A DNA stretch of 64,000 nucleotides from Entomoplasma freundtii (GTDB taxonomy: Bacteria; Bacillota_I; Bacilli_A; Mycoplasmatales; Mycoplasmataceae). The notes beneath the pieces are model-generated. The model saw nothing but the letters and a program-made list of their open reading frames with translations. It was not told the origin of the DNA and made no database searches. Where the stretch lies: assembly GCF_002804205.1 (NCBI RefSeq), contig NZ_CP024962.1, positions 434,001-498,000 on the forward strand, written 5' to 3'. Numbering within the stretch: the stretch's first letter is position 1; each line of letters starts with the position of its first letter. Below are positions 4,830-46,803 of this stretch, piece by piece. The position numbers and the translations under genes are program-made.

Positions 4830-7490
4830 TTATTTTCTATCAATTTTTTGGATATATCATGTGCCCAAAGTGTCTCAGGTGCCATCAGAACCACCATTGG
4901 CGGCTGTCCGCTTTAAAGTTACCTCATAAACTAAAGATTTTTTAGTATCAGGTTGACGATAATATAACTCATAAACGATTTCCGCTTCACTATACATTTC
5001 CTCTAAATTATTAAATCTAATTACAGAAGTTTTTCAGTTTTCTTTTGCAAAATAAGGCTTAAAGAACGTATCCACATAAAGTGGCACTGAAACTTTGTCA
5101 AACCAATTAACTAATTTAACAGCTTCTTGAATTATGATTTGCATTGTTGGACGGTTAATCAAAGCAATTTTGTCTGGAAGATCGGTATCATTACCATACA
5201 CTGCCGCTAAACTACCAAAAACAGATGTTTGTGCAAAAGTATAAACTGGTTGATTATCTTTAGAGAGAAAAGCACGAATTCCTAAAGTAAATAGTGGAGC
5301 CACTACTAGATTTTTTTGGTCACTTAACTTATCTGTTCCAATAATTACATCTTGAATGTTATTTCTATAACCAAAACCAATCAATGTCGCCATTACTACA
5401 TTCATTCCGTCAGGACTATTTAATCCATACTTTGTAACTGGCTCAGGTATAGTGCCATTGGTATAAGTTAGTGTCGCATTTTGGTTTAATGACCCAAATA
5501 ATTGACTAAATGAATAGTTATTTAGAAGGTATCTTTGTTGTTGGCTTATTCTAGCATTTCGTTGGACATCAAATTCTGTGGCCACAGTATTAATTAAATC
5601 GGTAATAGTTAATCCTTTAATTCCATAAAGAAACATTGGAAGGGTGCTAATATCTAAACCAAAACCTTTAAGTAAATCACCTATTTTTGTAGTAAGTAAC
5701 TTTGTGAGATTTTCTAAGTTATTCATAAGGTCTTTGGAAATATTTGCTACATTATTATCAACCAAAGCCTTTAAAACTATAGGAATTAATTGGTTACCAT
5801 AAATTCCTCAAATCGGGTTTCCTCAGTTTGATTCAAATAATGGCTTATTTTCCTTTTTCTCTACATCCATTAAGTTAACAAGTTGATAAAGAAGATTTTG
5901 GATGCTTGGATTCCCTTTTAAAAAGCCTGCTGCTGTATTTAGCAATTGTCTTAAGGAAAAGACTGCGGCTGGCCCACTATCCCAGGCTGGAGTACTATTT
6001 CCTAGAGTTGTTCTAAATGTAGCTAAGGCATAACCGATTATGAACGAAGGTATGTCTGGGAAACCAGGAATTAACGTTAACAATTTTGTTAATAATGGTT
6101 CAATAAGACCATCAAAAGGAAGGGTCATAACAGTAGTATCTTGACTTTTTCCATCGTCTTTAGTTGGAGCAGAAAAAATCAGTGAAAGGATTCTAGCAAA
6201 AGCATAACCATGAGGATCTTGTGGATCAAAACTGAAAATATTTTGGATGTAGCGAAGAAAACCTTGCAAGTTAAAAGTTTGATAATAACTATTATCACTT
6301 AATTGTACTCACTGTGTGATGCTTGCACTTTCTTGGCCTTCTTTAATTACTTGACTAGGATTTAAATAATTTACCTTTAAAGCCTTTGCTAAAAAGATAC
6401 CATTAGTCTCAGTCGTAGAAAAAAGATTATTATAATCTTCGTTAGCTTTAATGCTATTTACTGCCCGACTATTTTCATCGACATAGTTGAAAAAAACAGT
6501 CAAAGTTCTTAAAAACTTCAAAATATCAATAATCCCGTTAATTAAACGCGAGTTAAATACTACTTTAAAATCTTTAAAATCTTTAGAATAAATTGTTGCG
6601 TTTGCTACTGCCTCTGCATTTCGACCATCTGGCTTACTATTTTGTGCTTTAATGTTATCTAAATATTCGGTTCATGTTTTACCATTTGGTTTATCAACAC
6701 CACTATAAAGTATTTGGCCTAAGCCAGTTCAAGCATTAATATAGCGAACGGCAAAAACATCATTGAAGGTCATACTTTCAATATTTGGTAAATCATCTTC
6801 TTTTAAACTGTCAGAAAAGGTCTTAAAAATATAATCCCCTTGCGGAAATTCTTCGCCAGCATCTTTTAATCTTATAAAGTTCAAAACCTTGCCAATTAAA
6901 GCGCCATCATTTTCCGTCACTGCGTTCCCTACAACATCTAGGACTGCCCCTAAAGTATTATTAATGGCTGATGCTTGCATTTCGGCACTAAAATTATTAC
7001 CAAATAATAAAGAAACAACCCCACTGATTGGACCTAAGGTTTTAATAATACTATCTTGTGATTGTCGTCCTGTATCAACATTATCTTCTAAAGCTAGATT
7101 ACTTTCAAAAGGATCGCCCTCACGACCACTTTTAACAGTATAAACATCAGAATTACTTGAACCAAAATTAAACATTGATCCAAGCATTTCTCGGACCGTA
7201 TTATTTGCCCCACCAGTAGGCAATTCTGATTCAGTAAAATAATTTTTAATTGATTGACCATAAAGATATTGGGATGAGGCCTTTAACGATAATCCTTCAC
7301 CCCCCATAGCTTTTTGATCAGACCTTTGGCTTAAGACAGCTGATCTAGCCAATAACGAACTTATCGCTATATAGTTACGAACTTTGTTTTCAAGCGAAGA
7401 TTTTACCAATTTAGAATATTCGCAAGAAGTTACCGATGCGGTTGAGGCAACGACTGATAAAGCTCCTAAAATTGACAATAGTTTTTTCAT
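4830..7490 (-). CDS. Large lipoprotein paired with the FtsX permease
   Basis: This 886-residue protein begins MKKLLSILGALSVVAS and reaches a Cys in the context SVTSC at about residue 23, a typical mollicute lipoprotein signal. The mature protein should sit on the outer face of the cell membrane. The rest has no obvious membrane span and I recognise no domain; it is rich in Asn, Leu and Thr. Three in-frame TGA codons divide it in the standard code, but the frame is continuous from 7490 to a TAA at 4830-4832. The large permease starts 18 bases downstream, and lipoprotein plus FtsX-type permease pairs are common in Spiroplasma and Mycoplasma. A role as the permease's surface partner is inference. 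Confidence 0.82.
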
Positions 7491-7711: not shown

Positions 7712-8947
7712 TTATTTTTTCATTTTTTCATAAAGTTCAATAACTTTTTTCTCATAGGCTGATGATGTTTTCGGAAGGTAATATTGAATATCCTTGCGTT
7801 CAGGAGGTAAATAGTTTTGTTTAACTCAATCATTAGGAAAATCGTGCGGATAAAGATACCCTTGACCATGATTAAGTTTTTTTGCTGATTTATAATGAGT
7901 ATCACGTAAGTGCTCTGGAATGGCGAAAACATGACCACTTTCGACATCAGCCATTGCTTTTTTGGTAGCAATATAAGCTGAATTGGATTTTTCACTTAAA
8001 GCCATTTCTACAATCGCCAAACCTAGAGGGATAATGCCTTCTGGCATTCCAATGTGGCGAAAGGCTTCACAAGCCGAATAGACTCTTGGTGGCACTTGCG
8101 GATTAGCTAAACCAATATCTTCGTAAGCCATTACGACCATGCGCCGCATTAAAGTTTCAAAATCGCCAATAGCAGCTAATCTTGCAAAATAATAAAGGCT
8201 GGCATCAACATCGCTTCCCCGAATTGACTTTTGCAAAGCTGACTTGAGGTCGGCCATATCATCACCATAATGAGCTCCTTTGACCTGGGCTAAAGGTAAT
8301 ACTTCAGTGACAAAATCCAAAGTAATTTTTTCTTTCGGATAAAGGTTTAAAAGGAGTTCTAAATTATTAAGGGCACTTCTTAAATCCCCAGCGGAAATCT
8401 GCGTTAAATAGTCTAAGGCTTCATCATCAATTTTGAGTTTAAACTCTGGTTTTTTTAATAATTTTTTAAAAAAACCAAACATTTCTTTATGGCTAATAGG
8501 CTCGACTTTCACAATGTGGGCACGAGAACGAATCGCTGGATTCATCACAAAAAATGGGTTTTCTGTGGTGGTAAAAAAGACAGTTAAATTTCCCTTTTCA
8601 AGATGCTCTAAGAGCAAATCTTGTTTATCTTTATTCATTCGGTGAATTTCATCAATAATCAAGACAAAGTGATCATGATTAAGACTTTCAGTCATGATTT
8701 TATTAAGTGTTTCTTTTTTATCCAAAGTTGCGTTAAATGAAGCATAAGGGAAACCAAGGTCTTTAGCCAAAGCCGTGGCAAAACTAGTTTTGCCAGTCCC
8801 TGGTGGTCCATAGAAAATTAAGGAAGTGGGGAATTTTTTTTCCACCATCCTTTTAATTAAACCTTGATCCCCTAAAACCCGTTGTTGTCCAATGATGTCC
8901 TTAGTGCTCTCCGGTCGGAGTAAAAAGGCTAATGGTTGTTTCGCCAC
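7712..8947 (-). CDS. rarA: Replication-associated recombination protein RarA (MgsA), AAA+ ATPase
   Basis: The product (411 aa) is an AAA+ ATPase related to clamp-loader subunits that acts at stalled replication forks. Visible motifs are Walker A GPPGTGKTSFA near residue 50, Walker B LIIDEIHR near 100, a sensor-1 segment FFTTTEN, and the C-terminal region with GSDVDASLYYFARL and MVVMAYEDIGLANP typical of RarA. In-frame TGA near the C terminus is read as Trp and the frame ends at TAA 7712-7714. An ATG at 8962 is in frame, but the GGAGG ribosome site overlaps it. The GTG at 8947 lies seven bases after that site and gives MAKQPLAFLLRPES, the usual family N terminus, so I chose it. It is close downstream of lon but behind lon's terminator. 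Confidence 0.93.
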
Positions 8948-41795: not shown

Positions 41796-42297
41796 TTTTT
41801 ACCTCCTTATTTTTCTATTCAATATTGTTTTATTATAAACCAATATTATAAGGTGTCAAGTAAAATACCTTAACACCTTATCTTGAATAATAAATTATTG
41901 TTATTAATTTAAAAGTGTCTTAATCGTAGTATCATACAATTAAACAATTAGTTTAAAAGTTAGTAAATGACTACCGTCAAATTTGTATTAAATTATCTAG
42001 GTATAATTGATGATGTTTTTCAATTAATTTTAATAGCGGTTTTTCTAAAATAATATATTTAAAATTAGACTATTTTCTTGGTCTGTAAAATTGTTTTTTA
42101 AAAGCTAGTTATTAGTTCCTACTAGTTTATAGAAATTAAAAAATTGTCATTAAGTCAGTTCTTCAATAAATGAAAATTATATTGATTTATTAAAGAATTG
42201 ATGTTTTAAAACGACTTAAATAAATTTGTTGTTCACAAAAATAATCAGTTATTAGAATTAATTTTATAAAAATAGAAAAAAGGAAAAATAGTTTATT
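41796..42297. other. AT-rich divergent intergenic region
   Basis: This 502-base gap lies between rpsP (minus) and the unknown exported gene (plus). It has no coding frame that I can support. It holds an inverted repeat ATAAGGTGT / ACACCTTAT (41848-41856 and 41873-41881, 16-base spacer) close to the rpsP start. From about 42153 there is a longer imperfect fold (AAGTC, TTCTTCAATAAAT paired loosely with ATTTATTAAAGAA, GACTT). Promoters for both sides are expected here, but none is distinct. Confidence 0.5.
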
Positions 42298-43992
42298 ATG
42301 CATAAGATATTATTGGTATCATTTGCAGCAACACTATCAGCCCCAACAATTGCTAACCCTTCAAGCCAAATTGTCGTTTCAAAACAATACAAAAATCAAA
42401 TTGATAATCTTTTATTAAAATATGAAAAAGAAGTAGAAAAGAATAACACAATTTTTATTAATAAGACACATATCAATGGAAATGAAGAAAAATATTTATA
42501 CAATTTTTTTAATAATAAATCTATAAATGAAATTTCTATTAAAGCCAAAAGGGCCAATAGAGAAAGAAAAGTCAATAATAGCCCAATAAATATAAAAGAA
42601 GAAATAGATAACAATATAAAAAAATATGAAATAAATTATCAATTACATGACAATAGTTATACTGGAAGCATCAATATCTATGACAACGAGAAAATTAAAA
42701 TTATTATTCAAAGTTATATTTCAAAATTATTTAATAATTTTGAAATAACCAACTTAGAAAATGCGCAAGATGATTTTAAAATTATTAAAAACTATTTAAC
42801 TTTATTAAAAGAAGATTCCCCAGATGATTACATATATACCACTGAAGCAATTTCTAAAACCTTTAATGACAATATTGGTTATTTTGAAAATAATAAAACT
42901 TTGAACTATTTAAATACTAATGGGTGAAATTTAGTTAAAGGTGAATCTGAAAATGAAAATGAACCAGACTTCTTCTCACAATCATTTAATGGTTGAGAGA
43001 TTAACCGAAATTGAGATACGTTCAAAACAATTGTTGTAACTACAATTGTTTGAACAATAAAAAAATTGCTTAAAGAGCCACGCAAAATAACTACTATGAT
43101 TGTGGTTGAAACAATAAGCTCCTTATTAATAGGATCTGTTATATCTCCAATAATAACAGCAACCATTTTAACTTTGGTCAGCGTAATTATTAATATAGTT
43201 GCAAAATATGCAATTAAAAAAATTTCTAAAAATTTATCAGAAGAGGTTTACACTGCCGTTTTTGGAGAGAAACCTAAAAAATTAGAAAAAACAATAAAAG
43301 AAAATAAAGAAATTATTTCCAAAGTTTATGGTTCAAATTATGGCGATATTTTTGAAAATTATTTGAATCAAGGTTTCAATAATGGTTTTTGAAATAAAAT
43401 TAAAGGTGCCTTTGGTAAAGATAATATAAAAGATAGATCAATTTTTCTTTACAACAAGAGTGCCAATTCTAATTGGTTATTAAAAGAAATGAAAATTTAT
43501 TCTTTTGCAAAATATAGAAAATGGTTGCCTTGACAAACATACAATGTAGAAAATAGTAGAATTTCCCAAGAAAATTTAAACAACGAAATTGTTTTTTATT
43601 CAGCGACTAACGCAACGAAAGGGTCTTGGACAGGAACATATTTTGGGCCGATTGAAGATGCTAAAAAAAATTATTATGACCTTCATTGATCAAGAAACTT
43701 TTTAGAATGAACTTCATTATCAATTACTCCAAAATTTGCAAAAGTTTCTTCCGCTTTAATTCAATCTAGATTTGTAACGAGTAGTTACGAAATGTCTGAA
43801 AATATAGTCAATATATATAATGAACATGGTAAGGATATTAGCAAAGGTCTTGATAAAGAAACCAAGGAAATAGTTGAAAATTTAGCCAAAATTAAAAAGG
43901 ATGAAATAAATAAAAAACCAAGAGTTGAAGATGAAGACTTGAAAAATAAAGAAATGGAACTAATTAAATTATTTGGAGAAATTATTAATTAA
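42298..43992 (+). CDS. Unrecognised exported/membrane protein of 564 residues
   Basis: The frame is continuous from ATG 42298 to TAA 43990 when about 13 TGA codons are read as Trp. The start MHKILLVSFAATLSAPTIANP looks like a signal peptide without a lipobox Cys. Residues 24-235 are very rich in Asn, Lys, Ile and Glu. Hydrophobic segments follow at about 241-250 and 258-298 (TTMIVVETISSLLIGSVISP, ITATILTLVSVIINIVAKYA). The last ~260 residues are aromatic-rich (KYRKWLPWQTYNVEN, SWTGTYFGPIEDAKKNYYDLHW) and end in a charged helix. I recognise no family. It is more AT-rich than its neighbours and opposite in strand. AAAAGG is 12 bases before the ATG. The next gene starts three bases after the stop, so they form a pair. 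Confidence 0.7.
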
Positions 43993-43995
43993 TTA

Positions 43996-44730
43996 ATGAA
44001 AAAAATAAATAAAGAATTTGAAAAAAAGAACTTGTCACTAGATTTAAAGGATTATCTCACTTTAACACAGAAAAAAGTCTTGATTAGTTTGGTTGTAGCC
44101 TCACTAACTTTTGTAGTTACTGGAGTAATCTTAATTTATTTATTAACGATTAGTCTTAATTCTTCAAACGACTCCCTAATTAACAAAATTACAATTATTC
44201 AATGCCTTCTTATTCTTCCTTGTCTAATCTCTTTTAACTATTCGTTATGATTAATGTCATTATTTATCAATATTAATAAATTAAAAAATAATCTTTCTGA
44301 GATTCATCATTGATCATTACCTAAGAAAAAGAAATATTTTAGAACTTTTATATTAGTAGCCAAAATAAATTTTTCGCGACGCAATATCATCGCAGTTATT
44401 CAAGAAACTCAAACAATTTTTCAAAAATATATCCTTGACGAATCAAACCATTTATTTGATTACTCCACAACGAATTATGTTTTTGAACCGGTTGTAGAAA
44501 CCGCGACAATGTTTTTTAGTGATTTTTATATTTTTGATTTAATTGCCTTAGTTTTTTGACTCATCATTGGTTTTTTGCCAAAGACTTGAATTCGCCTAAA
44601 AAATGGTATCCATCTTAATTTTTTTAAAGCGAAAGCAAATGAAAATATCCAAAATAATTTTAGAACTATAAGCAGCAGTTTTCTCCAAACTTTAGGAATT
44701 AAAAAAGAAAGTGAAACGGTTAGTTATTAA
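43996..44730 (+). CDS. Unrecognised multi-span membrane protein, partner of the 42298 gene
   Basis: This 244-residue protein is read through six or so TGA codons as Trp. It begins with a charged segment MKKINKEFEKKNLSLDLKDY, then two helices (VLISLVVASLTFVVTGVILIYLL; IIQCLLILPCLISFNYSLWLMSLF). A soluble central part of about 90 residues follows, then a third helix (FDLIALVFWLIIGFLPKTWI) and a basic tail. No family is recognised. It follows the larger exported protein by three bases and ends before a strong two-way terminator, so the two genes form one transcription unit. An accessory or immunity role for it is conjecture. Confidence 0.68.
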
Positions 44731-44820
44731 CCATCTAGCCGAATATGCCTAAACCGGACTTAATCGAAGAAACCGGAATTAGTAACCTAAATGATTATTA
44801 ACCGAAAAATAGATAAAAAT

Positions 44821-44858
44821 AAAAAACCAACTAGCTTGAAGAAACTAGTTGGTTTTTT
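44821..44858. terminator. Bidirectional terminator between convergent genes
   Basis: A perfect 14-bp stem (AAAAAACCAACTAG / CTAGTTGGTTTTTT) with a 10-base loop separates the plus-strand membrane gene (stop 44730) from the minus-strand aminotransferase (stop 44875). Confidence 0.9.
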
Positions 44859-44874
44859 ATTTTTAAAACTTCTT

Positions 44875-46248: not shown

Positions 46249-46803
46249 ATGAAAAAATTATTATCAATTTTAGGAGCTACCGGTTTAGTAGCTACCACAA
46301 GTGCCACAGTTGTTTCATGTGGCGAAAATAATCAAAAAACAGCTCTAGATGAAGCTCTAGATAATTTAGAAAATTTGATTAATAGTTATATGCAAATAAT
46401 TACTAATGATATGAAATCTGATGACTTAAAAAAGGAAGCTCTAAGTTATCTATTACTTATTTCCACAAAAACCGTAAATATTCCTGTTGGACAAGAGTTA
46501 AAATGAACTAACTTGCTTTCAAAAGCTCTTGACGCGAAAATGGCAGAAATAATCATGCAAGATGAAAATTGCTGAAAATCAGCCGATATTGAGGATCACA
46601 AAAAAGAATTTGGAAAATTTGATTTAGTATCCACAATTAGCTTAGGTTATGATACTTTGTTTGATTATAAACACGTTGATACTTTAGATTTAGAACAAGC
46701 CCTTGAAAAGGCTGCAAAAGATTTATCAGAAATTCACGATGATGATTATTATCATCACGAGGCCCAAGATTTACAACTTTTAATTAATGAATTGAGAAAC
46801 TAG
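46249..46803 (+). CDS. Small lipoprotein
   Basis: The 184-residue product starts MKKLLSILGATGLVATTSAT and has the lipobox VVSC with Cys at about residue 24. The mature part is acidic and helical, without repeats (DEALDNLENLINSYMQIITNDM, ALEKAAKDLSEIHDDDYYHHEAQDL). Two TGA codons are read as Trp. The signal peptide is nearly the same as that of the 4830-7490 lipoprotein. Ribosome site AAAAGGATAAATA. Closed by the hairpin at 46814. Function unknown. Confidence 0.8.

What the first reader, a model, noticed from the sequence alone, without database searches (positions are those of the whole stretch)
42298..44730. Two-gene exported/membrane cassette with no recognisable family
The sequence shows two adjacent plus-strand genes three bases apart: a 564-residue protein with a signal peptide, an Asn/Lys-rich ectodomain, a hydrophobic middle and an aromatic-rich C half, and a 244-residue three-helix membrane protein. 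They are more AT-rich than the flanks, are opposite to the housekeeping genes, have a ~500-base leader and end in a strong terminator. The plan (large exported protein with a hydrophobic translocation-like segment, then a membrane partner) recalls toxin/immunity or effector/anchor pairs, but could also be a surface complex. This is the best candidate in the window for an undescribed system.
Basis: partly seen in the sequence, partly recalled or inferred. Interest (0 to 1): 0.75.

Follow-up and report, generated by a model that had tools for sequence, protein, structure and literature searches.

The report
Mollicute exported-protein plus membrane-partner gene pair
A beetle-associated wall-less bacterium carries an undescribed two-gene unit, a large exported protein followed by a small membrane protein, that recurs patchily in its relatives and behaves in evolution like a toxin with its antidote, although no function has been tested.

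Summary
Two plus-strand genes (42298-43992, 564 aa, "A"; 43996-44730, 244 aa, "B") are real, use TGA as Trp, and lie in an AT-rich island. The genome is most likely Entomoplasma freundtii, judged by size and G+C. No Pfam, NCBIfam, PHROG, PADLOC or PDB family fits. A has homologues in only five other species of its family (7 loci with the window), none seen elsewhere. In every one the next gene is a small multi-TM protein (decayed in one), against about 6% for other long genes. The partners have diverged far more than A. Extra B-like genes flank A in two genomes. B-like genes survive where A is broken (M. seiffertii) or absent (probably M. syrphidae). A-subtype and P0002-type partner co-occur. 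This fits a membrane-active exported toxin with a membrane immunity protein; S. aureus TspA/TsaI is the closest analogue in organisation, without homology. Against it: some B-like genes stand next to opp/pepO genes, no signal peptidase I was found, the structure model of A was poor, and no activity is shown. Toxin/immunity about 0.45, surface or host-interaction complex about 0.3.

The parts
41796..42297 (+). AT-rich 502-base leader between divergent rpsP and gene A
   Evidence: no Rfam family, promoter-like sites at chance level
42298..43992 (+). Gene A: 564-aa exported protein; signal sequence 1-19, Asn/Lys-rich N-domain about 30-225, hydrophobic segment about 233-310, conserved C-domain about 340-545
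   Evidence: ORF and translation; homologues; segment analysis; low-confidence model
43996..44730 (+). Gene B: 244-aa membrane protein, TM hairpin, cytoplasm-side loop by charge, third TM; proposed immunity protein
   Evidence: relatives in M. seiffertii and G206
44816..44863 (.). Symmetrical terminator hairpin shared by B and the convergent aminotransferase gene

Best explanation
A is a Sec-exported, surface-retained or released membrane-active toxin used against related wall-less bacteria, and B is its cognate membrane immunity protein. Shown: both genes are intact, adjacent and paired in all homologous loci; B-like genes multiply and outlive A. Inferred: A leaves the cell through its signal sequence. 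With no recognised signal peptidase I it may stay anchored by that helix and act on contact, or be freed by another protease. The conserved C-domain binds a target, the hydrophobic/amphipathic middle segment inserts into the target membrane, and B, sitting in the producer's own membrane, blocks insertion or the receptor.
For: Every A homologue is followed in the same direction by a small multi-TM gene (decayed in G153, cut by a contig end in one W. lucivorax copy), against 9 of 146 other long ORFs. Partners diverge faster than A: G159/G180 share 41% in A and hardly align in B. Extra B-like genes: two upstream of A in M. seiffertii, one beside A and several elsewhere in W. lucivorax, one ORF a fusion ending in a B domain. 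B-like genes intact where A has two frame breaks (M. seiffertii) or is absent at the same pepO-linked site (G206). A-subtype and P0002-type partner co-occur. Patchy distribution in one family only. Hydrophobic to cationic-amphipathic mid-segment in all A.
Against: No activity, expression or export data. Some B-like genes stand beside opp/pepO genes without A. P0002-type and other partners are not demonstrably homologous to each other. B decays together with A in G153 and G157. No signal peptidase I profile hit, which argues against simple secretion. No fold match, but the model is poor. The M. seiffertii frame breaks could be assembly errors.
Confidence: 0.45

Rival explanations
1. A and B form a surface complex (adhesin, host-interaction or scavenging): A is the ectodomain held at the membrane by its signal helix and hydrophobic segment, and B is its membrane anchor or assembly partner. 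Rapid divergence reflects host adaptation.
For: Obligate pairing, no signal peptidase I found, hydrophobic middle, AT-rich fast-evolving genes typical of mollicute surface proteins; the P60/P80 complex is a mollicute precedent (PMC539234).
Against: B-like genes occur without A and in excess of A, and the intact B-like genes next to a broken A are hard to explain for an anchor.
Confidence: 0.3
2. A is a toxin or effector aimed at the insect host, with B needed for its export or for self-protection.
For: All relatives with A are in a family of insect/plant-associated mollicutes; membrane-active segment.
Against: Extra and orphan B-like genes point to neighbours carrying A rather than to hosts; no effector family match.
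Confidence: 0.1
3. The B-like family is a general mollicute membrane family and its place after A is a side effect of operon habits; A works alone.
For: B-like genes also follow opp/pepO genes; partners of different loci are not significantly alike across types.
Against: Every A is followed by one, against a background of about 6%, in different chromosomal surroundings.
Confidence: 0.1

Closest known systems
TspA/TsaI, Staphylococcus aureus type VII toxin and membrane immunity proteins (PMC9484751)
   Same: Exported protein gene followed by polytopic membrane protein gene; multiple non-identical immunity paralogues; membrane as proposed target
   Different: TspA leaves by T7SS and TsaI is DUF443 with five TMs; here a Sec-type signal, three to four TMs, no DUF443 match and no detectable similarity; function untested
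Pore-forming colicins with membrane immunity proteins (recalled; not compared directly)
   Same: Large protein with hydrophobic segment plus small 3-4 TM protein encoded beside it
   Different: Colicins have no Sec signal and belong to Gram-negatives; no family match; the hydrophobic segment here is central, not C-terminal
P60/P80 membrane complex with HinT, Mycoplasma hominis (PMC539234)
   Same: Two-gene mollicute surface unit with a large exported protein on a type I signal sequence
   Different: The partner there is a lipoprotein and HinT is in the operon; here the partner is polytopic and no HinT gene lies next to it

Membership tests
TspA/TsaI (T7SS) | Immunity protein of the DUF443 family (PF04276) | tested here: not met
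   No Pfam match for P0002; DUF443 not among matches of the 9 partners; no DUF443 in the genome (the control list holds no staphylococcus and none passes the cut-off)
TspA/TsaI (T7SS) | Toxin exported by a T7SS | not tested
   A begins with a Sec-type signal sequence (by eye); T7SS genes were not searched
TspA/TsaI (T7SS) | Membrane depolarisation by the toxin, neutralised by the partner | not testable with these tools
   Needs experiment
Toxin/immunity pairs in general | Adjacent partner in all loci; partner genes also orphan or in excess | tested here: met
Toxin/immunity pairs in general | Toxicity rescued by partner | not testable with these tools
   Needs experiment
Pore-forming colicins | Colicin-type pore domain by profile | tested here: not met
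   No such match at E<=10 in Pfam or NCBIfam; fold comparison inconclusive
Lantibiotic ElxI1 (NF047829) | Score above curated cut-off | tested here: not met
   17.2 against 45 bits, 41 residues
P60/P80/HinT surface complex | Lipoprotein partner and HinT gene in the operon | tested here: not met
   P0002 has no N-terminal lipobox; the neighbours are rpsP and an aminotransferase gene. Sequence similarity to P60/P80 itself was not tested

The most novel reading that the evidence does not exclude
A new family of Sec-exported, possibly surface-retained membrane toxins with membrane immunity proteins, specific to wall-less insect- and plant-associated bacteria: a form of bacterial competition in mollicutes for which my literature searches found no described example.
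Probability: 0.4. Interest if true: 0.72.

Novelty: new variant of a known kind. Interest (0 to 1): 0.52.

Why it matters
Mollicutes have tiny genomes and no wall, and weapons against other bacteria are hardly described in them. A conserved exported-protein/membrane-protein pair with orphan partner genes would open interbacterial competition in insect mollicutes to direct test in tractable laboratory species such as Mesoplasma florum. If it is a surface complex instead, it is still an undescribed family that could bear on host association.

Tried and rejected
Profile searches in Pfam, NCBIfam, PHROGs, PADLOC, the PDB by sequence, and Rfam: nothing above chance. Weak hits to the A profile outside the family: three are ~520-aa ABC transporter ATPases and one an unrelated lipoprotein, so chance. 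Weak hits to residues 1-160 in other mollicutes fall mostly on lipoprotein loci. Viral contigs and plasmids: none. These do not show a new fold, since the C-domain was never folded alone. A phage or mobile-element origin is not supported: housekeeping flanks in the window; only the G180 locus lies about 3 kb from transposase genes. An aminotransferase-based empty-site comparison in congeners failed because the gene is not syntenic. Profile-profile comparison of the two partner types was not significant.

Full report
What is there. Under the mycoplasma code the window holds exactly the two genes described: A at 42298-43992 (564 aa) and B at 43996-44730 (244 aa), three bases apart, same strand, opposite to the ribosomal-protein cluster on one side and an aminotransferase gene on the other. 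Frame, codon-position composition and homologues show both are real genes. GC is 21-28% there, against about 33-38% in the housekeeping flanks. The 502-base leader carries no Rfam family and promoter-like sites do not exceed shuffles. The hairpin at 44816-44863 is symmetrical and can serve both converging genes.

Whose genome. The window is C1:434001-498000 of an 838,114-base genome. Entomoplasma freundtii CP024962 is listed with 838 kb and 34.6% GC (PMC6117150), and a relative of the same genus is Williamsoniiplasma lucivorax. I take it as E. freundtii; this is inference. G159 (847,966 bases) fits M. entomophilum, and G206 (908,214 bases) probably M. syrphidae, by size only.

Anatomy of A. 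A signal sequence (by eye); an Asn/Lys-rich N-domain; a conserved (S/T)(I/F)NG motif followed by a 70-90-residue hydrophobic segment that varies from TM-like to amphipathic and strongly cationic (13 basic, 2 acidic in M. seiffertii); then a C-domain that holds all 28 invariant columns (two of the seven rows are fragments that cover little else). The C half is not much richer in aromatics than the N-domain (12.8 against 11.6%). P0001 has no Cys. The AlphaFold model is of low confidence (pLDDT 49.6, only five permitted rows) but puts helices at 239-357 and strands at 377-482. B is a TM hairpin with long helices, a cytoplasm-side loop by charge, and a third TM.

Relatives. In 320 genomes of the order, A occurs in G000, G153, G159, G180, G205 (M. 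seiffertii) and G207 (W. lucivorax, two copies), all in one family. Hits elsewhere in the class are ABC transporters and a lipoprotein. In every locus a small multi-TM gene follows A in the same direction: G180 188 aa, G159 184 aa, W. lucivorax about 207 aa and a second one cut by the contig end, M. seiffertii 230 aa, and in G153 decayed remains. For other long ORFs of the same loci the figure is 9 of 146, three of them B-like themselves.

Behaviour in evolution. (1) The partners diverge faster than A: G159 and G180 share 41% in A but their B proteins hardly align. (2) M. seiffertii has, in order, two P0002-type genes, A with two frame breaks (in the signal sequence and at a run of eight T), and a B-type gene; all three membrane genes are open. 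(3) G206 keeps a P0002-type gene (46% identical to one of M. seiffertii's) in front of the same pepO gene, and no A. (4) W. lucivorax has two A but at least six B-like genes or fragments, including one ORF that ends in a B domain behind a second membrane domain, and one on the other strand beside the first pair. (5) G157 has the same flanking genes as G159 but only the tail of B between them (64-66% identical), so the pair was lost there. (6) The A tree joins E. freundtii and M. seiffertii (99.8 and 100) against all others, including E. freundtii's own congener, and P0002-type partners occur only in those two and G206. Subtypes of A and partner thus go together, with transfer or old paralogy likely.

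How it probably works. Points 1-4 are what an exported toxin with its immunity gene, and bystander immunity genes in non-producers, would leave behind. The analogue closest in organisation is S. aureus TspA/TsaI: a membrane-depolarising exported toxin followed by strings of variable polytopic immunity proteins (PMC9484751). This pair is not a member: no DUF443, a Sec-type signal, no similarity found. I infer that A uses its hydrophobic segment on a target membrane and that B protects the producer's membrane. Since neither signal peptidase I profile matched in these genomes while all 14 controls rang, A may remain on the surface and act by contact; mollicute proteins with uncleaved signal sequences are known (PMC539234). 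Shown: anatomy, pairing, distribution, orphans. Inferred: export, membrane insertion, immunity.

Doubts. Some B-like genes stand beside opp/pepO genes without A, the two partner types are not demonstrably homologous, B decays with A in G153 and G157, and no experiment exists. A surface or host-interaction complex remains a serious rival, at about 0.3 against 0.45.

Noticed in passing
window 41848-41881: A 13-pair inverted repeat overlaps the perfect TTGACA-16-TATAAT promoter of rpsP on the minus strand, as an operator would.
   Followed up: no
window 46249-46803 (+): A 184-aa lipoprotein of the common mollicute type lies next but one to the pair, on the same strand.
   Followed up: no
L010/L017, L043, L072: An M13-type peptidase (pepO-like) gene stands beside the pair or beside B-like genes in M. 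seiffertii, G206 and the W. luminosum-like genome G208.
   Followed up: partly
L070:5062-6546 (-): W. lucivorax ORF of 494 aa: an N-terminal membrane domain joined to a C-terminal B-like domain, without an A gene nearby.
   Followed up: partly
L017 about 7365-7400 and about 7999-8008: M. seiffertii A is broken in the signal sequence and at a run of eight T; phase variation or assembly error is not excluded.
   Followed up: partly
G000, G153, G159, G180, G205, G206, G207: No signal peptidase I by PF10502 in seven genomes, nor by TIGR02227 in the five of them searched, although all 14 control genomes ring; yet these genomes encode proteins with type I-like signal sequences.
   Followed up: partly
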